From Aureobasidium sp. EXF-3400 (taxonomy: Eukaryota; Ascomycota; Dothideomycetes; Dothideales; Saccotheciaceae), in contig SWBL01000022.1 of assembly GCA_024195585.1 (NCBI GenBank), positions 124,001-188,000 on the forward strand: a stretch of 64,000 bases of DNA. The letters are read 5' to 3'. Each line of letters begins with the position of its first letter. Within the stretch, counting starts at the first letter, position 1. This document shows positions 6,777-51,554 of this stretch, piece after piece. The notes beneath the pieces were generated by a model. It was given only the letters and a program-made list of their open reading frames with translations. It made no database searches and was not told the origin of the DNA. Position numbers and translations under genes: made by a program.

Positions 6777-7916
6777 CGTATTTTTACCGCTCACAGTTTG
6801 TCGGTTCTCTATGTTGTCTTTGTGCATCTTTTCTGAGTGCCTTTTTGCTTTGCTTTTATGAATGTGATTGGTTTGAGGGTTCTTTGACAGGATGGTCATG
6901 ATCACGGGTATATGTAAGATTTTGGTCGGAGAATGATGGATAAGATGAGGAAGGAGAATCCTACCAACATAGGTATAAGAGGTGGATAAAGCATAAGGAG
7001 ACTATGATGTAGTAAGAATAAGGAAGCACGGTATCAGAGGCATTTACTGCGAGATTACAATACCAGACATTTAAGAAACCAACTACCAAGAAACAAGACC
7101 GCAGACTTGAAGATACTCCTAGGCTCAGAGAAGAGGAGGAAAGAAAGCTTGTTCCAACCAATCGAGTCCATAGTGTTGGTGCAATATATCAGATAAGTGA
7201 ACATTTCCATGATGACGTGGATTGCTTGATGCCATGAATCGTGTATTGTATGTATCATCTTCAAGTGTTGCAAAAAGGCATTTAGAGCGTATAGATATCA
7301 AAATGCACAGTACTTTCGAGAAACAGAACAACATCCATTGAGAGGTGTATACATTCTAGGTTCTCTCTGGAAAGATCTCCAATCTGGAAATGTTTGTGCC
7401 TTTTGATAGGAGCACGTCGCTTTGAACCATCGTCGAGGAGCGTGGGAGAGGCATGGAAGTTGCAGACTTTGGCACAGGTTGTTTCCACTTCCGCAAAGTG
7501 TCTGGCAATGGTTGATCCAGATCACGGCGGCCGAAGGTGAGAAGACCGACATCGCGATCTTGAGCCTCTGATTCAGACATGAGGTATCGCGAAACTCCAC
7601 GTAGGTAGTGGTGTAAGACTGCACAGACTCGAGCTCTTCCATGCTTGGTGATCATGAATCTGGTGTTTGAGCATCATTGCCAGAAATAGCCACAGGCACA
7701 AACTCCAACACACACCACCACCTACCACCACCAAGCAAAAGAAATACCGGATTGCGGCGGAAGAAACTTGCATTTCGAAGGCAGTTTACTTTGGTTATTT
7801 TTCTGTCTTGCTTTCAGGACGGCTTTCCGCTTTTTTTTCTCTTTCACTTTTTTGCATTGTCTTTTTTTTTCTTGCTCTGCCCTTTTAGATCATTTCTTTC
7901 TGTCTTTCTGGTCTTG

Positions 7917-13347: not shown

Positions 13348-16126
13348 TTAACCCTGTCCACCGTTCGAAGACAAGAAAAAGTCCAGATCGCTAGGTCCCC
13401 CATGACCAGTCTGTTCGTTCTCAGCCAGTTGCTCTAGCAAACTCATGAACGGATCTTTGTCTCCTTCTGTATTCACACTGCCGTTCGCAGAAAGTCCTCC
13501 CGGAGTCTGCTGGTCAAACATCGCGTTGGAATGCGTGTTTTGCCCAGGGATACTGAACAGGTTGTCGAATTGAGCGGGATGGTTGAGGTTCGGATCCATA
13601 GGAAGAGAGAGATGTGATTGCCAGGGTGAAAAGGAAAATGATGGCGACAGCGGATTTTGAGTAAAAGTCTGGTTCTCGTCTGCTGCTGTGGTGTGCGGTG
13701 GAAGAGCAGTGGCGGATGGTGAAGTCAGAGGGTTTGTGAAGTCAGGGGACAGAGGATTGAGGGCTGGGTCGTGTATTACGGCGGGTAGATCGGGAGGACT
13801 CGTGGCATCGTTTGTGCGGCGGCGCTTACGACTTGCTGTAGAAACATGAAGATCGTTGATGAGATTGGAGGATGGTTTGGTCGTCGCTGTGGTAGAAGAA
13901 GAGATAGAAGGTCCATTTTGAGGTTGTGATGTCCACTGCCAGCTATTGCTGTTGCTGTTGTTGAATCCATTGTAGGCTGGTAGGCTCTCATGTAACGCTT
14001 CAACAGTAACGTCAGTGAATGTGATGTGTGCTCCGTCGATGAACTGTCCAGGGTATCGGTCGAAAAAGTCCTCCATTTGAAAAACAGGTGAAAATCGCAT
14101 AGGATTGGTCGCTAGCGACTTTACAAGCTGAGAATGGCAGCCGTAAACTGTTTGCAGCGTCTCTCTTTGATGTTGAACTCCAGCCCAGATGATGCGCATG
14201 TCTGACAGCTGGGACATTTCCTTCGACAAAAACTCGGCACTTCGTGTAAAGACATCCCCCTCTCGGCTCGGGTAATGCGCGCCATGAACGTGAATGGTAC
14301 CGGCAGTACAGAGACAGTATCCAACATAAGCTGGCCAGTCGGTTATTGATGAATGTTTGCCAATCTCAGTCAGCTCGGAAATGGCGTTCGCGTGCAAGAA
14401 ACATAAATTCGTCGCTTCGATTTGCCAGGATTGATGTTGTCCGGTGCCAGAGAGCTCAGTCAAGTCGATGGGTAGGAAAGGTCGATATATCAAACAATGA
14501 ATGAGGTGGTATACCAGCTTGCTCAAAACCAGTGTTTGACTCTCAGTCTGTCCGAATAATGCTTCAATCGACAGGAACGCGTCCTGTGCTCCTGAAGCCC
14601 AAGTATCGAGATCTTGCCGTATCTTGGACAAATTTGACTGAGCATGCCAGGGGAAGTGTGAATCGCCTTTAACGCCGCCTGCGGCAAGATAGCGATTCGT
14701 GATGCCCAGTATTCGTGAAATCTCAATCAACATGGAACCTCCGCTTTGGTGCAATCTCCCCGGTCCTGCAGACATGGGCAGATTTATTCCATTGGAGAAG
14801 AAATTGCCTTCGTATGGTATGGAGGTTGAATCGGACTGCCACCCGGGCAGTCGCAAGAAGATGGCTTCATCGGCGACTAAAGAAGGTCGTTTGGATCCAG
14901 AAGCAAGGAAGCGGTCCATGATGTAGCACGTCCAAAATAATTTGCGACGTCCCTCTCTTTCATTCGGCGAAATGCGAAGGCCTGCCGGAAGCTCACGGTG
15001 CAAGTTGAGCGCGTATGCCATGCTTATAGCACTAGCTTTAGAGAGGGTCAGCGAGTTTCTGTATGAAGGAGATGGAAAGTGGTACTGACTAAGAAGCATG
15101 TATGACTTCTTGCCCTTGCCGGCCTGGAAGAAGGCATTCGAGAGTAATAGCAGAACTTGTACGTTTTCGATGGTCGGATCATCAATATCCATGAGATTCC
15201 GCGCTCGTACTGCACATTCTTCGCTGTGACGGACTGCAGCATTGTGACCACCAAGATGTTGCGGCGCAAACCTGAAAATTGTCAGATGAAGATTTCTGAG
15301 CAAATCTCACAATAATTTCAGACGCACCGAGCGGTAACCGCATGGATAGCATTAATGACGCTGGGAGGTAGCTGTCCAGTCTGCCATCTCTGGCGAGTCG
15401 CAGCTTCATCAAGAATGTAATATGGCTTGCTGTGTATCCGTGTGAAATATGCATCGAGCAAGGTATTGTTCTGGAGAGCGGATGGCGCTTGTTGGCTAAT
15501 TCAAACTCTCAGCATGGTTTCACAGAAAAGGCAGTCACGATAGGTGCTCACCGCACAAACTGGTCTGGAAAGCCTATGCTTGGGTGGCGCTGTGGGGGCT
15601 GCGGTCGTTGCTGCTGTATCGGCTGTGCTTCGACTGGCGGTGGAGCCAGAGCATCTGGCGGAGAAGGAGCCTTCTTGGATGGCTTCTTGTCCACTGCATC
15701 CCTGACGCTCTCTGCAACTATTGCTTCTTGTGTGTCTTCGTCTGGATCTTTTCCTTCGTCTTTCAACCTCTTTTCCAATCCATTCACGCGTTTCAACAAT
15801 GCTTCGAGTACATCGGTCTTGGGACCTCTTTTCTTGGGAACCGCATCTACATGTCGGAATAAGTCAGCCTCATAAATCTTCATGTGTAAGGTATCCAATT
15901 CCCTACCGTAGACGCAGTCGCAGTTGAAGACTTGGCAGGCTTCACAAGATGGTCGCAGCCGGTTGCACTTGATCTTCGCCGAGTCTGAGTCTTCTGTGCG
16001 TACGTGACTTGATTATGCCAAACACACCTTTCTCTTGCGACAACTTTTGCAGTTCATGGCTTCCTTTGGTTCATTGCTGGATCGCCGCACCGGTAGGCGG
16101 TCTATACCGATCTGTGGCCGAGACAT
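13348..16126 (-). CDS. Zn2Cys6 transcription factor with fungal-specific TF domain
   Basis: Six exons (16126-16028, 15973-15907, 15846-15552, 15495-15328, 15271-15090, 15035-13348) give 832 residues. The first two exons encode the Gal4-type cluster with cysteines at about 26, 29, 36, 43, 46 and 53 ([13 protein letters not shown]..., spacing 2-6-6-2-6). A linker helix ([15 protein letters not shown]) follows, suggesting a dimerisation coil. Residues ~150-500 are a Fungal_trans-type region ([46 protein letters not shown]). The C-terminal 200 residues are Ser/Pro/Asn-rich and probably disordered. I chose ATG 16126 over an in-frame ATG at 16057 because the frame is open and gives a normal tail before the zinc cluster. 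The target pathway is unknown. Confidence 0.88.
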
Positions 16127-24645: not shown

Positions 24646-25623
24646 TCAATCTGCCTTCATTTGACTAGGCAGAGACATCTGCTGGACAACAACCTTCTTC
24701 CACTTTTCTTGTCCCTCCTTGATATCCTCTTTCCTCGGTGCATCTCTTTTGGCCCAATTCATGATATCCTTTGAATGTTGCAGTTTGCCAGCCCAAGTCA
24801 AGCAACTCCATTTTGACTCCTCTTCCCACACTGGCAACACAAGACCGTCTTCTCGTACGGTTAAGTTGCCTCTAGTACCGCATGTCGTACAACCAATAGC
24901 ATTCTTGTCATGTGCCGGCAGAAGTTCAAACTTGGCAAGATGGCAATGCGGACATGCGCCTTCTTCTTGGTCACCCAGATACTCTGCATCATCGTACGAC
25001 TTGCCAATTTGACTCGCAATGTTCGTGCCCATCCTCTGAGCTCGAGAAATCAAATCTTGATGTAAACACACCGCCCCTGAGCTTCCCAGGTCTTGCCCGA
25101 TGAATTGATCCACGATTCTGGCATGTAGGGCATAGAACAAGAGGTGCAATGATGGTAACACCATAGTGAATTGATCTGGTGTTGAAGACCCTCCCACAGC
25201 AATGAAACCCAATACTCGTGGTTTAGACAGACGGGGGTCGAGTTTGTCGGGATTGAAGGTCTTGCCAAAAGTGACGTCGAGAGAAGGTCCTCCTATTCTA
25301 TCCATGAGTAGCTTTAGAGTGCCTAAGGGTTGATGGCTGTATGTGGGCGTGGACACGATGATGGCATCGGCGTCAAGGATAGCTTCGCGGACGGCGGCTC
25401 GATCGTCGGGTGCATTATTGGAGGCCACATTGAGCTTTGAGGCGAGATCGAAACCGACTGGGCTATCCAGAGGTGCTGGGTTGGTTGGTATAGATATAGA
25501 CGGAACGTGTATCCATGATGTCGTGATGGTAGAGTCGGACTCGGTAGCTGCTGTCAAGGCAGCCTTGAGCAAGATCTCAGAATTACCAGAAGGCGTGCCG
25601 TTTCCTAAACCAAGAATATGCAT
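24646..25623 (-). CDS. NADPH-dependent FMN reductase-like protein with C-terminal zinc ribbon
   Basis: A single-exon 325-residue protein. Residues 1-190 match the flavodoxin-like FMN_red fold: MHILGLGNGTPSGNSE is the phosphate-binding turn, and DADAIIVSTPTYSHQPLGTLK is the second flavin loop. Residues ~222-260 carry two CxxC pairs (ACPHCHLAKFELL ... IGCTTCGTRGNL), a rubredoxin-like or zinc-ribbon module. The remainder is a Lys/Glu-rich tail. Proteins of this fold pass electrons from NAD(P)H through FMN to quinones, iron or azo compounds; the acceptor here is unknown. The ATG is the first in frame. Confidence 0.8.
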   Translation of the reverse strand: MHILGLGNGTPSGNSEILLKAALTAATESDSTITTSWIHVPSISIPTNPAPLDSPVGFDLASKLNVASNNAPDDRAAVREAILDADAIIVSTPTYSHQPLGTLKLLMDRIGGPSLDVTFGKTFNPDKLDPRLSKPRVLGFIAVGGSSTPDQFTMVLPSLHLLFYALHARIVDQFIGQDLGSSGAVCLHQDLISRAQRMGTNIASQIGKSYDDAEYLGDQEEGACPHCHLAKFELLPAHDKNAIGCTTCGTRGNLTVREDGLVLPVWEEESKWSCLTWAGKLQHSKDIMNWAKRDAPRKEDIKEGQEKWKKVVVQQMSLPSQMKAD

Positions 25624-25877
25624 TGCGCGACGATTGAAAAATAGGTAGATGTACTTACAGAACTATTGTCCTGAGCTTAGGATATATATCTTGATGCTCA
25701 AAGAGGGGTCAGTGGTTTGAATCGGATAGCTCGGATCTACAATCGAGCCCTAACCTAGGGCTTTCATCGGGATGTGGAGGAACGGCAGTGGGGAAGCAGT
25801 CTGCCAGATTGGCACATTGTGGAATCAGATGTGGTTGTTGAGAACAAAAAACCGCGCCTAATGAAACAGCAACTCAA

Positions 25878-26089
25878 CCTACCCATGTGCTGAATATTGT
25901 CACTCTCATCGCTCTCACGACAACACATACGCGGCGCTGGAGCTATAAAAATGCTTAGTGTTTTCCAGAAGGTAGTGAAGTCCATAGAGAGTCGATAACA
26001 TTACGACTATTAGTGGACACTTCCTATCTGTCAAAAGAACTGTGCATTTCGGTAGTTGTCCGCGTGACATGATTTTGCACATGGGGAGG
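25878..26089 (-). mobile_element. MITE-like element, copy 1 (212 bp)
   Basis: Bounded by ~26-bp terminal inverted repeats at 25878-25903 and 26064-26089, beginning CCTACCCATGTGC on the left; the right end reads as CCTCCCCATGTGC on the reverse strand. Both arms end in GTCAC after the same spacing. The reverse complement of the whole element aligns end to end with the 212-bp element at 48899-49110, with shared blocks such as GAAATGCACAGT, ATCGACT and TCTGGAA. It has no coding capacity. No target-site duplication is obvious, so the transposon superfamily is unknown. Confidence 0.75.
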
Positions 26090-27308
26090 AAGGACCGACA
26101 ACGTAGGTGGTGAGCAGTCTTCGTTATTATCGGTCTCCAGGCATAAGTTTGACTTGGCTTTCAGATGTTCGCATTGAAGCCTCTTGAACTGTCAGCATGG
26201 TACCGATTGATCCGAAATTGAGTCAAGCGCAGCAAGTTCAGCAAACCAAGAGGAGCCCAACCTCCACATGATTAGATTGTAGTGTCTCCATCCGGCAACC
26301 AAAGCTTGAAGGCAGGCAGAGACGTTGGCGAGATGCTCAACCGAGACATAGGCCTCACGGGTCTGCATGGCTCATCGAGGTCTCCTGAATCATGCAGCGG
26401 GAGGTCCATATGGAGATAGATCATTATTGTTGAGCGTCATAGATGGTTGTGTGAACCAGAAGGGAAGAGCGAAGGTCCAGACAACGCCATTGCCGCACAA
26501 GTCTCCGGTTGATCATTTTGCCGATGTTTCGCCAGGACTTTGTAAGCCGTCATTTCTCTCTGTTCAATCACCCTACATCAACTCTTGGCTTCAGGGTGAA
26601 CTCCGAATGTGACCATCGAGATTATGCGACTCTCAACGGCCGGCTAGATACAATCCTCTGCAGGCCGGTTTTAAAGTTGGCTAGTCTTCCATCCCTCTCT
26701 CTCCAGCTCGGCAGCTCCCGCCGTGCATCATATCATCTCGGCAAGGTCTACTTCCTTTCTTGGACGGCTCGAAATATCGCATACATGCAGAGTGGCAGCC
26801 TCCCGCAAGCAAGAGATTTGGAAGTATAGAGTCGGACCCGAAACTCAACCTGACATTGTATATGCAGAAGGATTCCGTGCCTGACGCGCAGGAACACCCG
26901 GTCTTGATCGTTAAGCTATCCCTGCCAACATGCCAGAGGTTGCCGTAACGTCGGGTTCGTGAACCGTGATCAGTTTACAGGTCCATTGTTCAGCGACCAC
27001 CATGGAGCAGCGCTATCTGATGCTGGCCTATGCTCAAGGACATCCAGAAGGCCATTGGAATGCCGCTATACTCGTAGCCACTCTTTCTACCGCGGCTGTC
27101 GCGACTCGCAAGCTTCACCAACTGAACCAGGTGCGAGTAAAACGGTCGTGCTTCTAACATTCCATAGCGTTCAGCCTCCCATATGCAGCTCTCTCCAAGT
27201 GACTATTCTCGTCCAGTTCTGGTAACCACATTCTCCTGATGGCGTCCAGAGCGGGTGACTGAAAGTCCTGAACAGCTGAGAAGGATTGTCCAGGATGTGA
27301 ACTAAAGG

Positions 27309-27362: not shown

Positions 27363-29245
27363 ATGAAGACTTCGATCGTTCTGTCCGCAGCCTTCTATGC
27401 TGTGGCACAATCTGCCGCAACTGCAGGGTGTGGAAATCCTTTATCGCCTCAATTCACTCGTGGAGGTGCCGATCAGACCAACACCTTAAGCTTCACAACC
27501 TCGGGCGGAGTTGTTCGCAGCTATTTACTTCATATCCCTTCTTCCTACGATACTAACACACCCGCGCCCTTCGCGTTCTCTTTCCATGGCAGAGGCGCAT
27601 CTCCCCAGGAAGAGGAGAGTATCTCGGGGCTGTCAAACGAGACCTTCAACCCAAACTATCTGGTGGCATACCCGTTGGGTATCAATGCGGAATGGCAAGG
27701 TGATCCGGACGCTGTTGGCTTTGATGACATCAGTTTTACACTTGAACTTCTCACCAATTTGACAAGCACTTTCTGTCTCGACTCATCCAGGTTGTACGCA
27801 ACAGGAAAGAGCAATGGAGGAGGGTTTGCTGCGAACATCCTAGCCTGCGACCCTCAGGCGTCTCGCGTTTTTGCAGCATTCTCCGGTGTGTCAGGAGCCT
27901 ATTACCAAGGAACGACTGATGTCAACTGCAATGATGCCACCGTATCTATTGCTTGCAACCCAGGCCGTTATCCCGTGCCGCTTTTCACGACTCATGGCGA
28001 TTCTGATACGACGATTCCATACGTAGGAGGGGGCCGTCGTGGTCGTTGTTTACCCTCTATCCCACTGTTCATGACAAGCTGGTCAAGTCGCAACAACTTG
28101 GGATCTTCAAACACTTCGGTCTCACTTTACAACAACAATGTGGTCCGCTACGACTACGGAAACGAGACTTTCCCACAGCTGGGCGCCCATTACTATGTGC
28201 ATGGTCTTGGACATACCTGGCCTTCCATTGCAGCTGGATCATGGTTTGATGCAACACCTCTGATGCTCGCTTTCTTCAACAAATGGACCCTGGACACGAC
28301 GCCCTATAACTTCGTGAACGCCACTACTAGTACAACTACCACTACCAGCTCCTCATCCACACGAACGTCTTCGACAGCCACATCAACCTCCAGCGCGTCG
28401 TCGTTGCCTAACTTGTGTCCATCGGCAAATGGTCAGACAGTGACTGACTCTAACGGCAATGGCTATCGCGTCACCTGTTCGGCGGACAACAGCGTTGGAT
28501 CTTATGCCAATACTCAGGCTTCTACATCATACCTGGACTGTATGAATGCTTGTGATGCCGCGAGCTCGGCTGGTTGTGTGGGCTTCACGTACGTTGGCGG
28601 CGGCGGAGGCGGTTCATCGGGCACTTGTTGGTTGAAAAAGAGCATGGCCACCTACACAACTGCTGGTAGCAACACGATCTCTGCAATCAGGGTATCTGGT
28701 GGATCATCTGGCTCCAGTGTCTCATCTGTTGCATCAAGTGCATCATCGTCATCGACATCAACATTGTCGGCCACTTCATCCGTGGCACTATCTTCCGCTC
28801 CTGCTACCTCGGCTCTATCTTGCCCTGCTTCGAACAACCAGATATACACCTACGCGGCCAATGGAGCACAATTCGTAATCGAGTGTGGCATAGACCATTC
28901 AGGAGGTGATATGTCTAGTCTCTCTGTCAAGAACCTCGAAGGCTGTATCGCAGCTTGTGCAACTACCACCGGCTGTGTCGATGTGTCGCTGTCTGGATCG
29001 GCTTGCTATTTGAAGAAGACCCTCGGAGCAGCTGTCAACAACGGTGGTATTCTCGGAGCCAGGTACATTGGTATTGCCTCGACATCGTCGTCCTCTTCGG
29101 CATCATTGTCCTCTCCGACATCATTAATATCAACATCACTATCATCATCATCATCTTCGTCATCATCATCATCATCAACGTTGGCAACGTCAACAGCATC
29201 ATCAACGTTGGCAACGTCAACAAGCGTACTGAGCAGTAGCGCTGT

Positions 29246-29278
<33 letters not shown>

Positions 29279-30299
29279 TTCTTCTTCTTCTTCTTCTTCT
29301 TCTTCTTCTTCTTCCTCCTCAACACCTGCAACCCAATCGTCATCGTCGTCGTCGTCGTCGTCGAGCGTATCGCCATCTGTTGGCGCGGATGGTTACACCA
29401 CGACTAGCTATCCTCCTACTTGCACTTCTATCAACACCAATATCTATGCAGTGGTAGACAACAGTGGAAAGCCCTACCTATACATGTGCGGCGGCGGTTC
29501 AGCAGGAGGTACAGCATCGACAATCACCAATGTTGCCAACTGGACTGCTTGCTTCCAAGCTTGTGATAGCTACACCGGCTGTACTGGTTTCAGTTACAAC
29601 CAAGGCGCCGCTCTCGGCAATGGAGTCGGCCAGTGCTTGATTAAGACAGATAGTCCTCAGTCTTTCGTCAGTACTGCTAATCTTCTGAGCACAAGAGTTG
29701 CTGGATACATTCGTCCAATCACTACTACCTCTAGCTCAGTATTGACGAGTGCAAGTACGACTGCCACTTCCAGCTCGGTATCAACAAGCGCAAGTATCAC
29801 TGCGAGCACTAGCGCCTCTTCAACGCTGAGCACAAGCAGCTCGAGTACGCTGAGCTCTACAACGACACCATCCATGACCTCGTTCAGCACTTCGACTATT
29901 CCTTCCAGTTCGGCTACAACCTCTTCTTCGATTGTTTCGAGCCCTAGTTCCTCGTCATCTACGACGAGCTCCAGCTCCTCTAGTTCCTCATTTGTGATCT
30001 CAAGCTCGAGTACCTTATCGACGGCAGTCACTCCCTCATCCACTGCCGTCGCCGCACCTTCCTGTCCGGCATCCAATGGCACTATGTACACTGACGCCAG
30101 TGGATTTGCATACACCGTTCTCTGCACCTACGACACCTCAGCCAACAACATTGTCGTATCATCCAGCGCCAGTAGCTTTGGAGATTGTGCTGTACTCTGT
30201 GATACCACCACTGGATGCACTGGTCTTACGTTCAACGGCACTGTTTGTTCGCTCAAGCAGTCTTTTGGTCAATACATTCTTGGTGCTATCAAAGCATGA
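27363..30299 (+). CDS. Secreted CE1/LpqC-type esterase with four apple/PAN-like modules
   Basis: A single-exon 978-residue protein with a signal peptide. Residues ~20-320 form an alpha/beta-hydrolase related to feruloyl esterases and polyhydroxybutyrate depolymerases: FHGRGASP, nucleophile Ser150 in GKSNGGG, an Asp at about 213-215 in THGDSDTT, and His284 in GLGHTWP. Four Cys-rich modules start near residues 352, 485, 682 and 898, each with a C..C pattern, a middle TGC(V/T)G(F/V) or AGCVGF and a final LKK or LIK, resembling apple/PAN domains. They are joined by long Ser/Thr linkers, including an almost pure Ser stretch of about 28 residues. The family hydrolyses plant-wall or polyester ester bonds; the PAN-like modules probably bind carbohydrate or protein. 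Substrate unknown. Confidence 0.82.
29098..29363 (+). repeat. Coding microsatellite (poly-Ser linker)
   Basis: Runs of (TCA)n, (TCT)n and (TCG)n trinucleotides, including a near-perfect TCT block at about 29245-29315, all reading as serine. A locus of this kind is prone to length variation without breaking frame. Confidence 0.9.
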
Positions 30300-30478: not shown

Positions 30479-32541
30479 CTATTCCGATTTGATAGCAGCA
30501 CGACCTAGCGCCAATTCTTCCAAAGTCAAAGTCTGCCCATTCTTGTCGCGTGAGCGAGGGATCCAGTATATCGTCAGTACAAGCCCGATAAGCATGAATG
30601 CTGAAAAGCTGCAGACGACTATAAGCCTGGTCACAAACAAACATGACTTTTTTGATAGGAAACTTACACAAGTAAATATGTCTTGTCGTCTTTGATACTG
30701 CCTGTGATCCATCCGAGAATACATTGAGACAGCACAGCTCCGAACTTGCCGAAAGCAGCGCTGATACCATGGGCCGTACATCTATAGCGCGTAGGGAACA
30801 CTTCTGCTGGTATGATGTAGGTAGTAGCATTTGGTCCTGTGTTTGATGTCAATATCAACTCCGATTGCAGGTCTTAGAGGCTTACCAAAGTTGAAGAAGA
30901 TCTGTGTCAGTATATATAACACCACAAGTACCGATGATCTTTGTGAGTCCATTAGTTTGCGATAGCTTGTACCGATCACAAGAAATAGTATGAACAACCA
31001 GAAGAAACCATTGATCTGGATAGTCCTTCGTCCCAAGCGATTGATCGAGATGAGCGTGACCAAGTTGCCCAGTATAGCTCCGAGTGACACGATCAATAAG
31101 CTTTGCCATGCGTTGGCCAGGAGAGATTGGTACAATGGTGGCTCTGACTGATTGTTGTTTGTCCAGATCTTCTCGAGAGTGGTATAGTCATTCTGTAGAG
31201 TAAGTTAGCAGACACATGGCCTGGTTTTAGGCAAACATACCATGCCAAGCCCATAGAAGGCCAAATCGAGAGACAACCATGTCAAGGAAGTCGCTACCAA
31301 GGTGCGATAGTTTCCTTGATGCCAAAAGTACTCCTTGATATCTGCCCACGAGGCTTGTGGTGGTTGCGACATCTCATCTGACTCCATGACTGAGAGGGGG
31401 ACGATTGGGTTCAATCCTTCGGCCTGAAATTCGTCTTCATGGTCCTGTTGGAAAGAGTCTCGGCTTTCGGTCGAGAAGTGATCACCAGAGTAGAAGTAGC
31501 GGTCGACATCAACAGCTGCTTGATGATCATCTCTTACAATGTCGACAGTGTATCTCGGGCTGTGCAATCGAACAGTCAGCATATACACATATGAAAGATC
31601 AGCATTCTTGCAACGCACCTTTCTATGATGGTGAGACGGAACCAGAGGGAAGCTGCCGCCGGTACTGCTCCAAGACCGAGGATCAAACGCCATATGACAT
31701 CCAGAGTCTGCTTACATTCATAATCACAGTCTGTGGTATTGTTCGGGAGTGACCCACGAGCGGCGTATACCGCAACCAGTGGAACCAATGTAGCGAGAAG
31801 CTGGCCAAGTGGCTGGCACATGAAGACGGCAGCCAACATCCTGCCTCGAAGTCTGGTCGGAGCCATTCTGAGAGCATACGTTAGTGATTACGAATGCTTA
31901 AGTCCCAATATGTCATACTCTGAACAAAGAACAGCACTCAATGGATAGTCAGCTCCGATGCCAATTCCCATCACAAGTCGCCAAAAGATAAGCCACCCAA
32001 CAAGCGACATGGATTGATTGGCACCGGTGGAGGCCATGGCTGAACCTAGAGCGGCGGCCACAGTGATGACAAGCTCAAGGCCGTAGGCCTTCCTTCGACC
32101 TGAGCTGGTTCAGCAGGAGCATATCTGTGTTCATGTAGATTGTCTCACCCAACCAGTCTCCAGCAAGACCGAAGCCTAGTTGGCCTAGAATACTACCTCC
32201 CAGAGTCGCAATATTGATGGCGACAGCATACTCATGTGGTACCATTCCTGTATTGGGGTAGTAGATGTGTCCTATCATGGGCATTACGAGATTGATGGAG
32301 AAGATCTGTATGATATGAGCGGGAACATGAGCTTCTCGACAGTCATCTTACATTGTACGCGTCTGTCAAGAAGCCAACTCCAGCGACTACGACAACCCAT
32401 AACCACTCTCTTCGTCTTGAATGCTCGAGAGAATCGAGAACATACTGCCGTCTGTCTGTGGGCTAATAAACCATCAGTGCCTGTATTGTCGCATTCAAGC
32501 GCCTGGTCATGATACCGAGATATCTTCAAATTTGGAGACAT
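30479..32541 (-). CDS. MFS inorganic phosphate transporter (Pho84-like)
   Basis: Nine exons fit (32541-32516, 32451-32352, 32305-32149, 32099-31919, 31867-31619, 31559-31241, 31192-30886, 30836-30668, 30626-30479), giving 551 residues. All joins after the first keep phase and restore Pho84-family motifs: [73 protein letters not shown] and [19 protein letters not shown]. Twelve helices fit, with a long central hydrophilic loop ([14 protein letters not shown] region). Pho84 relatives import phosphate with protons at the plasma membrane. The first exon, nine residues, is my least certain join; an in-frame TAG upstream of the second exon shows that some upstream exon is needed. Confidence 0.85.
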
Positions 32542-44964: not shown

Positions 44965-46088
44965 TTTGAAGGTGATTTGTTGGTGAAGGGGTTGTTGAGA
45001 GTTGAGAAGTAGTAGATGAAGAAGTTGTTTGGAGGTAGTAGAAGAGTAGTGTGGAAGAGTTGGTTGTTTGGTTGCTTTGGTTATTTGGTTGCTGAGTTGT
45101 GTGATGATTTGGTTTTGGTCGGATATCAAGGAGGTTTATATACCTTGTTGACCACGGAATCTTCTCACCGTGCCCTCACAGAGCTGAAGGATCGCTCGAA
45201 CATGTTGCTGCGGTATGCATCAAGATGCCATAATAGAAGTGGATCATGTTGGCGTTGGAGTGGACATCCAACAAGCCTCAGGGCTATACCAGGATTCTGC
45301 CACATTAGACAACGAGTGGGGCCAACTCGCACCAAGCGTAAGGTGTTGTTGCTTTCATCTCTGCAGTTCACATACCGATGGGCACTATAGTGTGGTCAAA
45401 AATAGGTTGCTAGATCCAAAGCTCCAATGTCTGTGTTGTGAAGGAGGAAAGATCGAAGAATGCGCAGCACCATAGCTTCCTTCCTTCCCCACAATGGTGG
45501 TGGCTGGGCTCGGCTTCCATACGTTTGCACCCAGGCCACAATGTGCAGAGTTGAAGTTGGACAATTTTTGACAATATACCGGGTTTCCCTCTTGCTGCCG
45601 TCGAAGCCATACGGATTAATGGGCCCAATCTTGATTCTCGACAGCACTTCCGTATATAGAATCGAGTTACTCATGTTTGACATGATCATGTGTAAGCATT
45701 TGAGTATTGTGCAAGTTTTGTGGGTTATGCAAGTTGTGAAATCATTGCTGTGCATGCAAGCGAAACACGGCGCCAACTCGAAGGATTCTGTGAACCAATC
45801 AGGCGGGCGCAGAAACAAGATGCAATCTATCTGGTATATTTAGGGACAACTGACCGCAGCTTTAGGCGCTCTGCAGGATTTTACCAACAGACACTGCGCC
45901 ATTGTCAGACAGTCAATTATGGGTCATCCTGACTGTCGCAGCAAACCGCGCCGCTGGGCGGACATGCCAACATGAAACAGCGTATTTGAACTTCAAAGGA
46001 CATCCTTTAGGAGTTTTCCTTCCAATTCATCCTTCTCGTTTGTGTTGCTGTTGACCAACTCGCATCACTATACACGTTGTTCAGGACC
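44965..46088. other. Divergent intergenic region
   Basis: About 1.1 kb between the divergent small secreted protein and aspartic protease genes. Overlapping frames at 45396-45843 on both strands have no domain. The putative TATA box of the secreted protein gene is annotated separately. Confidence 0.5.
45134..45141 (-). promoter_or_regulatory. Putative TATA box of the small secreted protein gene
   Basis: TATATAAA on the reverse strand about 170 bp upstream of the ATG. The distance implies a leader of around 130 nt. Motif evidence only. Confidence 0.4.
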
Positions 46089-47651
46089 ATGAAGTGCACT
46101 GGAACAGCTTCTGTCATACTCCTCTCCGCATCGTCAGCTTTGGCGGCAGGCACACTCGAGTTCTCACTCGGACGCGAACAACACTCGCACTTTCCGGATC
46201 TTGTCGAACGCGATGTGGACGGTACTTCCGAGTCTGCACTGCTTACAAACTTCGCCGGCTCCATTGGATTGAGATACTTTGTCAACCTCACTGTCGGCAC
46301 ACCTCCTCAACCACAGACAGTCTTCATCGACACTGGAAGCAGCGACACGATACTCCTAGCTGCCGATGCGCCTTTCTGTCAAGATGGAAAGTCCAAGTCG
46401 TCAAAATGTCCTGGCGGATCGTACAACACATCGGCCTCATCCACATTCGCAATGCTCTCTCAAGGTGCCATAGATGCGAATTATGGCGAGAACGCCTCTG
46501 TCACTTCTGAGGGTAGTTTCGTCGCAGACCTTGTGACCGATGTGGTGCAGATTGGTGACATTGTTGTGACTGGTGCCCACTTTGGCCTAGCACATGAAGC
46601 CGAAGGCAATTTCCTGGGTAATGGTCGTTACGCTGGCATCATGGGACTTGCTTATCCAGTCATTGAGGCTGTCAAGGAAGGCCAACCAAGGTATCCCACT
46701 TTTGTCGAGTCGCTGGTTGGAGCTAAAGCCATTGCTTCGCGTCTGTTCAGTCTCTATCTCAACGAGCTGAGCAGTTATGGCTCTATTCTATTTGGTGGTG
46801 TCGACACTGGGAAGTACACTGGTAATCTGACGACGCTTAACTTCCTACCATCGGGAACTGAGGAAAAGAAAGTTCAGCTCTTCGCGTTGCGTTTGGACGA
46901 AGTATCCGCAACACGCGAGGATGGCACAGAAGAGACTATCATTGCACCCAAGGAATTGCAGGGTGTCGTTTGGCCAGACTCTGGAACTGCAACTTGGAAC
47001 GTTCCCACAGACACTTACAACAAGATAATCAACATGACTGGCGTCATCATGTCAGGATCCAATGCAGTCATGCCCTGCAGCAAGATCTCAAACAAGACAT
47101 CCTTCACATTCACCTTCTCTGGCAACGGCACCAACAAAGCTCAGCTAGAAGTTCCACTCAGTTCCTTTTTCATCCCAGCAGCCCTCACCGATGGCTCAGG
47201 TGTTGCAAAGGTCCAGGGAGAAGCCGCTTGTGTGTTGATGGTCAAAGAAGCCGCCCCAAACTTGAGCATCTACCTCATGGGCGATCCAGTGATGCGTGCC
47301 GGCTACTGGGTCTTCGATCTCGACAACGGACAAGTGTCCGTCGCGCAAGCACGTCTGTCATCCACGCCTTCCAACATCGTTGCCATTGAGGCTGGTCCCG
47401 ATGGCGTCAAGAACGCAACAAATCAGCCTATTGAGCTTGGTGCTAATCAGACTGAGGAGATCGATGGCACTGCTACTGCTTCGGTCAGCTATTCGCTATC
47501 CACGGCGGCTAGTGCTGTGGGACAGACTGCCGGTCCTCAATCTACGGTCTTGAGCAGTGGAGCTATTGGATTGATGCACGAAACTACTCCTAGAATGTCT
47601 ATGGTTGGTGCTCTGTTGCTTTCGGTCCCATTTGGCGCTTTCCTGTTGTAG
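46089..47651 (+). CDS. Pepsin-like aspartic protease, yapsin type with GPI signal
   Basis: A single-exon 520-residue protein. It has a signal peptide (MKCTGTASVILLSASSALA), a short propeptide ending near LVERD, then FIDTGSSDTILL with the first catalytic Asp81. The second catalytic Asp is Asp297 in WPDSGTATW, where DSGT replaces the common DTGT; DSG is tolerated in yapsins. There are numerous NxS/T sites. The C-terminus is Ser/Thr-rich and ends in a hydrophobic tail (MVGALLLSVPFGAFLL), the expected GPI-anchor signal. The family cleaves surface and secreted proteins at the plasma membrane or wall. The frame is open upstream, but this is the first ATG. Confidence 0.9.
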   Translation: MKCTGTASVILLSASSALAAGTLEFSLGREQHSHFPDLVERDVDGTSESALLTNFAGSIGLRYFVNLTVGTPPQPQTVFIDTGSSDTILLAADAPFCQDGKSKSSKCPGGSYNTSASSTFAMLSQGAIDANYGENASVTSEGSFVADLVTDVVQIGDIVVTGAHFGLAHEAEGNFLGNGRYAGIMGLAYPVIEAVKEGQPRYPTFVESLVGAKAIASRLFSLYLNELSSYGSILFGGVDTGKYTGNLTTLNFLPSGTEEKKVQLFALRLDEVSATREDGTEETIIAPKELQGVVWPDSGTATWNVPTDTYNKIINMTGVIMSGSNAVMPCSKISNKTSFTFTFSGNGTNKAQLEVPLSSFFIPAALTDGSGVAKVQGEAACVLMVKEAAPNLSIYLMGDPVMRAGYWVFDLDNGQVSVAQARLSSTPSNIVAIEAGPDGVKNATNQPIELGANQTEEIDGTATASVSYSLSTAASAVGQTAGPQSTVLSSGAIGLMHETTPRMSMVGALLLSVPFGAFLL

Positions 47652-48416: not shown

Positions 48417-48917
48417 TTATACTTTTCGACCTTTTGTATTTTCGTAATAGCAATACTCGCTGTCTCCTTCGTCTTCGCCTTTGCCAGACTCTTCGGGTCT
48501 AGCACTGTGACCCCTAGGATTATGGTTCCTACGGGGTTGGAAGTAGTCGGATTTGGTACGGAGTTTGCCATCCTTGTGAAGCTGTCGCGCTATAGCTCCT
48601 GCTTCAAAGGCCTGTATCCGAGGACAGTCGGTCTTGCCATTCTCGAAGGCGATGATGTCTTCGAATGTAAAGACTGCATATTCTGGTGTGCCTCCACATA
48701 TCTGACACGGACCCTCGAGTTGTGTATCTCTCTTGTGGTGGCCATCGTAGTGAAATGCTAAGACACGAAGGGTGTTAGGGTCTTCTCGTTCGATCCAGGC
48801 GATAGACCTTTCCCAGTTTGATGTCAAGGTGTCGATGCCTTGTGACACAATAACGCTTAGTCCTGGTAGATAGAGGAGCCATGTAGCTGCACGTGTGACC
48901 TCCCCATGTGCAAACAT
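48417..48917 (-). CDS. Orphan ORF with CxxC motif, start codon inside a MITE
   Basis: A 166-residue frame without recognised homology. It contains GPCQICGGTPEYAVFTFE, a possible metal-binding CxxC, and a very charged C-tail (GKGEDEGDSEY). The ATG lies within the terminal inverted repeat of the element at 48899-49110. Either the true start is elsewhere, or this frame is the remnant of a gene whose upstream part lies beyond the element. No splice model links it convincingly to the ORFs at 49-50 kb. Confidence 0.4.
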   Translation of the reverse strand: MFAHGEVTRAATWLLYLPGLSVIVSQGIDTLTSNWERSIAWIEREDPNTLRVLAFHYDGHHKRDTQLEGPCQICGGTPEYAVFTFEDIIAFENGKTDCPRIQAFEAGAIARQLHKDGKLRTKSDYFQPRRNHNPRGHSARPEESGKGEDEGDSEYCYYENTKGRKV

Positions 48918-49110
48918 ATGTCACACGTATAGCTATAGAAATGCACAGTCCCTTTAGTAGATAGGGAGTATCCACCGAGAGTCGTGATGCGATCGACTTT
49001 CTACGGGGTCTACCACCGTCTGGAAGGAATTGTGCATTTTGACGGCTCTACGGCGCCTGTGTGTTCTCGTGAGAGTGGGTGGGAGTGACAAAATTTAGCA
49101 CATGGGGAGG
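48899..49110 (+). mobile_element. MITE-like element, copy 2 (212 bp)
   Basis: Terminal inverted repeats of ~26 bp at 48899-48924 and 49085-49110: the left begins CCTCCCCATGTGC and ends GTCAC; the right begins GTGAC and ends GCACATGGGGAGG. The two arms match at all but a few internal positions. The element is exactly the same length as the inverted copy at 25878-26089 and aligns with it throughout. It is non-coding. It separates two orphan ORFs and supplies the end of one and the start of the other. No clear target-site duplication. Confidence 0.78.
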
Positions 49111-50864: not shown

Positions 50865-51554
50865 CTAGCGGTAGTGGTAAGAGGCACCATTTCTGCGGGG
50901 TCGGTTAAGGAGAGCGAGCGTGGTTGGTACAGAAGGGGAGCGTTTAGCAGATTTCGAGACTTTCGCAGATTTCGAGACTTCGGCAGATTTCGAGACTTCC
51001 GTAGATTTCGAGACTTCCGCAGATTTCGAGACTTCCTTACGAGGAGCTTGCTGTCTAGGTCGGCGTTGTACACCGGGATCCCGGACATCAGATGATCGAC
51101 CAGCGGTGGGAACAGGATGCTTCGAGGATACGGGAGGGACGGCTGTAGTGTGTAGGGCGTCCTCGACATGCGGACTAGTAGTAGGAGCAGCTGCTCTTCC
51201 TAATGAACGACGAGGGGCTTGGATATCGAGGTCGCTCTGTGGAGGTGTTTGTGATGTTATACTTCTTGCACGGTTGGCTTCGTTAAGCCATGTATCAAAT
51301 ACTTGGCGGGCAAGACGTTGGAAGTTAGACGAGTTGAGTAGCTGTGGACGATGACTGTCAAGGTATTGTAGGCTACGTGATAGCATGTCATCATGGTTCA
51401 TGCTACTGAAACCACCGACAGGTCTAGTAGCGCGCATGATGTAGAAGCTGGTCTGATCTAGAAGGTGGTTAGTAGCGTAGCGAGAACAGCGATAGGATTC
51501 CATACTGTGAAGGTCTCTGCGATCACTGTCTGCTGGTTTTATATGGCGAGGCAT
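50865..51554 (-). CDS. Orphan ORF with EVSKSA repeats
   Basis: A 229-residue frame with a genuine ATG (MPRHIKPADSDRRDLHSMES). The first half is ordinary polar sequence (FQRLARQVFDTWLNEANRAR looks helical). The second half is Pro/Ser/Arg-rich and contains a run of six-residue units E/K-VSKSA encoded by an 18-bp tandem repeat. It is basic overall. No domain is recognised; it may be a nuclear or disordered protein. It lies on the same strand as the other island ORFs. Confidence 0.5.
   Translation of the reverse strand: MPRHIKPADSDRRDLHSMESYRCSRYATNHLLDQTSFYIMRATRPVGGFSSMNHDDMLSRSLQYLDSHRPQLLNSSNFQRLARQVFDTWLNEANRARSITSQTPPQSDLDIQAPRRSLGRAAAPTTSPHVEDALHTTAVPPVSSKHPVPTAGRSSDVRDPGVQRRPRQQAPRKEVSKSAEVSKSTEVSKSAEVSKSAKVSKSAKRSPSVPTTLALLNRPRRNGASYHYR
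50947..51036 (-). repeat. 18-bp tandem repeat (5 copies), coding
   Basis: Five consecutive units of GCAGATTTCGAGACTTCC with one or two substitutions each, exactly 18 bp apart, reading on the reverse strand as EVSKSA/T units. Confidence 0.95.

What the first reader, a model, noticed from the sequence alone, without database searches (positions are those of the whole stretch)
48899..49110. Two 212-bp inverted-repeat elements of one unnamed MITE family
Seen directly: this element and 25878-26089 are each 212 bp, have ~26-bp terminal inverted repeats starting CCTNCCCATGTGC, and align over their whole length when one is reverse-complemented. The inner sequence has diverged, so they are old copies in opposite orientation 23 kb apart. 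They are non-coding, so movement would need a transposase in trans. I do not recognise the family.
Basis: seen in the sequence. Interest (0 to 1): 0.75.

Follow-up and report, generated by a model that had tools for sequence, protein, structure and literature searches.

The report
Old fungal hairpin transposon family
The two 212-base repeats are old, non-coding copies of a small mobile DNA element scattered through an Aureobasidium-like fungus: an ordinary kind of element, but one whose moving enzyme was not found and which leaves an unusual two-base footprint.

Summary
48899-49110 (A) and 25878-26089 (B) are 212-bp inverted-repeat elements, 76% alike over their whole length in opposite orientation. 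A third, decayed copy lies at 7275-7476. The own genome holds at least 131 distinct related places and 392 terminal motifs against 35 for the reversed control, so the proposed refutation fails. Of 53 elements with both ends, 31 carry an exact 2-bp target-site duplication (5.6 expected) and none a 3-bp one. The dinucleotides vary, and the flanks prefer a palindromic T-N-C-[WW]-G-N-A target. This is a genuine MITE family with several subfamilies. An inner inverted box (TAGCTATAGAAATGCACA / TGTGCATTTTGATAGC) is nearly as conserved as the TIR; I infer a second transposase-binding site.

The host is of the Aureobasidium clade, Dothideales. No autonomous parent was found: none of 47 hits to four transposase families lies within 50 kb of any of the 93 exact TIR copies. 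Mixed dinucleotides and 2-bp length argue against Tc1/mariner (TA), ISL2EU (AT) and hAT (5-8 bp). The superfamily stays unassigned. New member of a known kind, modest interest.

The parts
48899..49110 (+). Element A, 212-bp MITE copy (flanks GA / AA: the 2-bp duplication is imperfect)
48899..48924 (+). Left terminal inverted repeat of A
   Evidence: pair I5
49085..49110 (-). Right terminal inverted repeat of A
   Evidence: pair I5
48930..48949 (+). Inner box of A, left (TAGCTATAGAAATGCACAGT)
   Evidence: sequence; conservation
49030..49046 (-). Inner box of A, right (TTGTGCATTTTGACGGC), inverted partner of the left box
   Evidence: sequence; conservation
48977..49001 (.). Central palindrome of A (GAGAGTCG ... 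CGACTTTC)
   Evidence: sequence; fold
25878..26089 (-). Element B, 212-bp MITE copy in opposite orientation
25876..25877 (.). AA, one copy of the 2-bp target-site duplication of B
26090..26091 (.). AA, other copy of the 2-bp target-site duplication of B
7275..7476 (+). Third copy in the window, decayed at both ends, interior and inner boxes still recognisable
   Evidence: (E 4.5e-16)

Best explanation
A and B are old copies of a non-autonomous cut-and-paste DNA transposon (MITE) family in an Aureobasidium-clade fungus. Shown: shared TIR ends and near-fixed length, dispersal over many contigs, 2-bp target-site duplications with a symmetric target preference, and several subfamilies with the same ends and footprint. 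Inferred: a transposase supplied in trans recognised each end through two sites, the outer TIR (CCTCCCCATGTGC) and an inner inverted box (TAGCTATAGAAATGCACA), both with a TGTGCA core, and joined the ends two bases apart at T-N-C-W-W-G-N-A targets. Its source was not found here; it may be lost, too changed to recognise, or missing from this broken-up assembly. The copies have since decayed and I find no sign that they do anything for the host.
For: 131 distinct places; 392 TIR words against 35 in the reversed control; 31 of 53 paired-end elements with exact 2-bp TSD, 5.6 expected, maximum 15 in 2000 shuffles, 0 of 53 with 3 bp; the same in the main subfamily (14 of 27) and the others (17 of 26); T at -5 in 59 and C at -3 in 55 of 106 flanks, p 4e-10 and 2e-10; inner box the best-conserved interior window, 0 and 3 of 5000 column shuffles reaching it in the two alignments; 35 of 38 further exact-TIR sites have a family-like interior, the weakest at E 7.5e-4.
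Against: No autonomous element and no orthologous empty site was seen. 22 of 53 paired-end elements lack a perfect 2-bp TSD, A among them. TIR conservation is partly a product of how copies were recruited. The second binding site is inferred from conservation alone.
Confidence: 0.93

Rival explanations
1. The family belongs to a known superfamily (Tc1/mariner-pogo, PIF/Harbinger-ISL2EU, hAT, CACTA/CMC or MULE) whose autonomous copy is simply not recognised here. This differs from the best explanation only in naming the enzyme.
For: The genome does hold decayed and some open transposase frames: DDE_Tnp_4 2 hits, hAT dimer 22, DDE_3 11, DDE_1 12; some hits are pieces of one gene. CMC elements have 2-4 bp TSDs (PMC4482050, passage read).
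Against: None of these 47 hits has one of the 93 exact TIR copies within 50 kb (coordinates of those calls), and the loci that were read show no pair of these ends. Only 4 of 31 TSDs are TA and 6 are AT, while ISL2EU duplicates AT and Tc1/mariner TA (recalled). Transposase_21 and Plavaka gave 0 hits, but their control genomes were empty too; MULE and YqaJ gave 0 with working controls.
Confidence: 0.6
2. Introner-like elements: mobile introns inside genes that are spliced out.
For: Short, non-coding, many copies, in a class of fungi where introner-like elements are known (recalled).
Against: With the element and one TSD taken out, the stop-to-stop frame across the site has a median of 100 aa against 133 aa at random positions of the same flanks, and exceeds 200 aa in 4 of 41 sites against 21% of controls.
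Confidence: 0.02
3. A conserved structured RNA or regulatory hairpin family rather than a mobile element.
For: Strong single-strand folds; conserved inner box.
Against: Duplicated target dinucleotides at the ends; 2 of 33 predicted pairs with a double change and a covariation term of -0.23 kcal/mol in the main subfamily; no Rfam match here at gathering threshold.
Confidence: 0.03

Closest known systems
MITE families with 2-bp TSD of Mycosphaerella graminicola / Zymoseptoria tritici (PMC4522978, passages read)
   Same: Dothideomycete MITEs; nine of thirteen families have 2-bp TSDs; families that share TIR and TSD but differ inside are grouped into superfamilies there too
   Different: Eight of those nine use TA and one CT; here the dinucleotide is mixed. 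I had no sequences to compare, so relatedness is untested
ISL2EU group of the PHIS superfamily (PMC4482050, passages read)
   Same: 2-bp TSD
   Different: TSD is AT within A|AT|T and TIRs usually begin GG there; here mixed TSDs and CCTCC ends; no YqaJ protein in this genome
Tc1/mariner and pogo MITEs such as Fusarium mimp (recalled)
   Same: About 200 bp, 2-bp TSD, inverted repeats of similar length; some Tc1 elements have two binding sites per end (recalled)
   Different: Strict TA target (recalled); here TA in 4 of 31; the inner site is inverted relative to the outer one
CACTA / CMC elements
   Same: TSD of 2-4 bp (PMC4482050)
   Different: Ends CACTA (recalled) against CCTCC here; no Transposase_21 hit, with an empty control

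Membership tests
MITE (non-autonomous TIR DNA transposon) | Short and non-coding, with terminal inverted repeats | tested here: met
   212 bp, 26-bp TIR at 85%; the stop-to-stop frames listed by the mechanical ORF call are chance-like
MITE (non-autonomous TIR DNA transposon) | Many dispersed copies with the same ends | tested here: met
   131 distinct places; 392 TIR words against 35
MITE (non-autonomous TIR DNA transposon) | Target-site duplication | tested here: met
   31 of 53 exact 2 bp, 5.6 expected
MITE (non-autonomous TIR DNA transposon) | Autonomous partner with the same ends | tested here: inconclusive
   Not found; 100 of 392 TIR places were listed and only short stretches around many were read
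Tc1/mariner-pogo | TA target-site duplication | tested here: not met
   4 of 31 TSDs are TA
ISL2EU (PHIS) | AT duplication and a YqaJ protein | tested here: not met
   6 of 31 TSDs are AT; 0 YqaJ hits with a working control
PIF/Harbinger | 3-bp TSD (TWA) | tested here: not met
   0 of 53 with 3 bp
hAT | 5-8 bp TSD | tested here: not met
   0 of 53 with 3 bp or 4 bp; 0 of 27 at 3 to 10 bp
CACTA / CMC | 2-4 bp TSD with CACTA-like ends and matching transposase | tested here: inconclusive
   TSD length fits; ends are CCTCC; Transposase_21 0 hits with an empty control
Introner-like element | Sits inside genes and is spliced | tested here: not met
   Frames across the sites are shorter than at random sites; splicing itself not testable here

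The most novel reading that the evidence does not exclude
The family was moved by a transposase of an undescribed group or superfamily, marked by CCTCCCC ends, a TIR plus an inverted inner box at each end, and 2-bp duplications of varied sequence within a palindromic T-N-C-W-W-G-N-A target; its autonomous form should turn up in relatives of the Aureobasidium clade.
Probability: 0.2. Interest if true: 0.6.

Novelty: new member of a known kind. Interest (0 to 1): 0.33.

Why it matters
It gives a black-yeast lineage a well-sampled MITE family with a measured target rule and a likely second cis-site, so the missing transposase can be looked for in relatives by its ends. In one genome paper on the genus no DNA transposons were reported and 271 interspersed repeats stayed unclassified (A. 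pullulans NRRL 62031, PMC11905612, passages read); a family like this could be among such repeats, which I did not test. Biologically it is an ordinary, decayed genome parasite.

Tried and rejected
Rfam at gathering threshold: only a tRNA in the window. C18:17702-19414 looked like a 1.7-kb autonomous element but is two copies of another subfamily on either side of an unrelated stretch. Copies whose match ends near position 177 were checked for a shared longer right arm; their continuations are unrelated. Eight transposase families were searched; Plavaka and Transposase_21 had empty controls and say little. Of the 22 hAT hits 8 were read as DNA (plus larger stretches around 2 hAT contigs), of the 12 DDE_1 hits none (the C572 stretch did not reach its DDE_1 hit); for the rest I compared coordinates with the 93 exact TIR places. 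Many transposase hits lie on small contigs, so an element may be cut there. A second or empty site for the locus of A: none, where 40 of 80 candidates were scored, mostly MITE copies, so this is weak; the fetched loci share no flanks with each other. RIP: C-to-T 0.10 at CpA, 0.113 at CpG, 0.084 at CpT, 0.077 at CpC, no CpA bias. Viral collection: inner-box pattern 0 matches; TIR pattern 1 match without family interior, taken as chance. Papers: searches; of the three that name Aureobasidium I saw listings, and passages of one paper.

Recruitment and dropped rows: main-subfamily copies were found by similarity to A, the others mainly by their TIR, so TIR conservation is partly by selection; the inner box of the latter is not. 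One search kept 43 copies at E below 1e-6; 16 of them lacked a clean end and were left out of the TSD count. The 53 need both ends within 3 mismatches, a length of 165-240 or 361-389 and at least 12 flanking bases. (26 of 49) also held a few chance pairs and is superseded.

Full report
Observation. The window holds 212-bp elements at 48899-49110 (A) and 25878-26089 (B). A has 26-bp TIRs, 85% complementary, and A aligns with the reverse complement of B over its whole length: 150 nt ungapped at 74%, 75.6% over 212. Direct alignment is much worse. A profile made from full-length copies finds a third, decayed copy at 7275-7476 (E 4.5e-16).

Host. The window protein 13348-15303 (-) is 90-91% identical to proteins of Aureobasidium sp. 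EXF-8845 and EXF-3399 and 89% to one of A. pullulans. The host is therefore of the Aureobasidium clade, Dothideales. G000 has 53.4 Mb in 717 contigs. Haploid Aureobasidium strains are reported below 30 Mb and diploid A. melanogenum near 50 Mb (PMC11905612, passages), so a diploid or hybrid is possible by size; but neither the locus of A nor the fetched loci showed a second version.

Copy number. With A as query, 40 of 79 candidates were scored and gave 43 matches at 41 places, A and B included, 72-90% identical apart from A itself (merged). With a copy of a second subfamily (L047:3493-3715), 40 of 152 candidates were scored, at 40 places, the query included, the others up to 95% identical, so that subfamily has younger copies. 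The TIR word CCTCCCCATGTGC occurs 392 times with at most one mismatch against 35 for the reversed control; 100 places were listed, 93 of them exact. Of 38 further exact sites fetched, 35 have a profile-detectable interior, the weakest at E 7.5e-4, and 3 do not; one of those three, L106, looks family-like by eye. Merged, the calls give 131 distinct places, a lower bound.

Target-site duplication. Of 27 main-subfamily copies with both ends, 14 have an exact 2-bp TSD (3.7 expected). Of all 53 paired-end elements, 31 have it (5.6 expected, maximum 15 in 2000 shuffles) and none has 3 or 4 bp. The dinucleotides are AT 6, AA 5, AG 5, GA 4, TA 4, AC 2, TT 2, CT 2, TC 1. The main set (14 of 27) and the other subfamilies (17 of 26) both show it. 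Over 106 ends the flank prefers T at -5 (59, p 4e-10) and C at -3 (55, p 2e-10), which with the TSD reads T-N-C-W-W-G-N-A on both strands. B carries AA/AA; A has GA/AA, a duplication decayed or never perfect.

Anatomy. The element is a near-palindrome: TIR, inner box, central GAGAGTCG...CGACTCTC, inner box, a stretch of about 30 bp without a partner on the left, TIR. Single strands fold well (z -5.2 and -5.9). Conservation is uneven. In the 27 main copies the best 13-column window is GAAATGCACAGTT (0.974; 0 of 5000 column shuffles reach it). In the second alignment (A plus 24 elements of other subfamilies) the best interior window is CTATAAAAATGCA (0.88; 3 of 5000), after the two TIR ends (0.954 and 0.932). 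The 51 elements carry on average 3.1 TGTGC/GCACA words against 0.38 in shuffled letters. I infer two transposase sites per end, outer and inner, with a shared TGTGCA core in inverted order. Within the main subfamily pairs mostly decay on one side (2 of 33 pairs with a double change, covariation term -0.23), so I see no selection on RNA structure. Between subfamilies the subterminal word differs at both ends together (TGTAAC/GTTACA against GTCAC/GTGAC; up to 8 of 25 rows with a double change at a pair), as expected of paired binding sites.

Parent. Transposase hits: DDE_Tnp_4 2, hAT dimer 22, DDE_3 11, DDE_1 12; none for Plavaka, Transposase_21, YqaJ, MULE, of which the first two had empty controls. 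None of the 47 hits, some of them pieces of one gene, has one of the 93 exact TIRs within 50 kb (coordinates of these calls), and the loci read show no pair of these ends. A parent with changed TIRs, or one on a small broken contig, would have been missed. The mixed TSD is against Tc1/mariner (TA, recalled) and ISL2EU (AT; PMC4482050, passages). The superfamily is open.

Position. Frames across the emptied sites are shorter than at random sites of the same flanks (median 100 against 133 aa; over 200 aa in 4 of 41 against 21%), so most copies are probably not inside coding exons. By the ORF list and Pfam scan, B lies about 250 bp upstream of the start of a flavodoxin-like reductase frame (24646-25623, -) and A 1.2 kb downstream of an aspartyl protease frame (46077-47651, +).

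Known or new. Dothideomycete MITEs with 2-bp TSDs are known: nine families in M. graminicola, eight TA and one CT (PMC4522978, passages). The three library searches that name Aureobasidium listed no paper on a MITE in that genus by title or start of abstract; the library is partial. I file this as a new family of a known kind. What stays open is which transposase makes 2-bp duplications of varied sequence at a palindromic target.

Noticed in passing
L016, L023, L031, L032, L041, L042, L043, L045 (own-genome copies): Loss of the right end is commoner than loss of the left: by the match limits, seven copies are cut on the right only (several near positions 166-178), one (L044) on the left only and one (L016) on both. 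Too few to call significant; continuations are unrelated.
   Followed up: partly
L046:1057-1272 and L038:1021-1234: The interior between the inner boxes looks inverted relative to the main subfamily; L046 matches A from 33 to 144 on the opposite strand at 80%, as if the hairpin centre had flipped.
   Followed up: no
L048:1108-1483 (C1:67107-67482), with L083 and L093: A longer, 376-bp form with the same ends, a GA/GA duplication and an extra inner hairpin; L083 and L093 are 87-91% similar to it.
   Followed up: partly
L033 (C118:31853-32048 and 32110-32321): Two copies 61 bp apart in the same orientation; the outer flanks of the pair read TG/TG, which neither copy shows alone. Chance or a unit moved together.
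   Followed up: no
G000 as a whole: At 53.4 Mb the genome is about twice the haploid Aureobasidium size given in PMC11905612, yet no second version of the A locus or of the fetched loci was seen.
   Followed up: partly
window 50920-51035: An 18-bp tandem repeat (GAGACTTC-GCAGATTTC-like units) within overlapping open frames.
   Followed up: no
window 27363-30299 (+): A 978-aa frame whose first third resembles feruloyl esterase (PDB 9j07, E 2.4e-98) and whose rest carries PAN domains.
   Followed up: no
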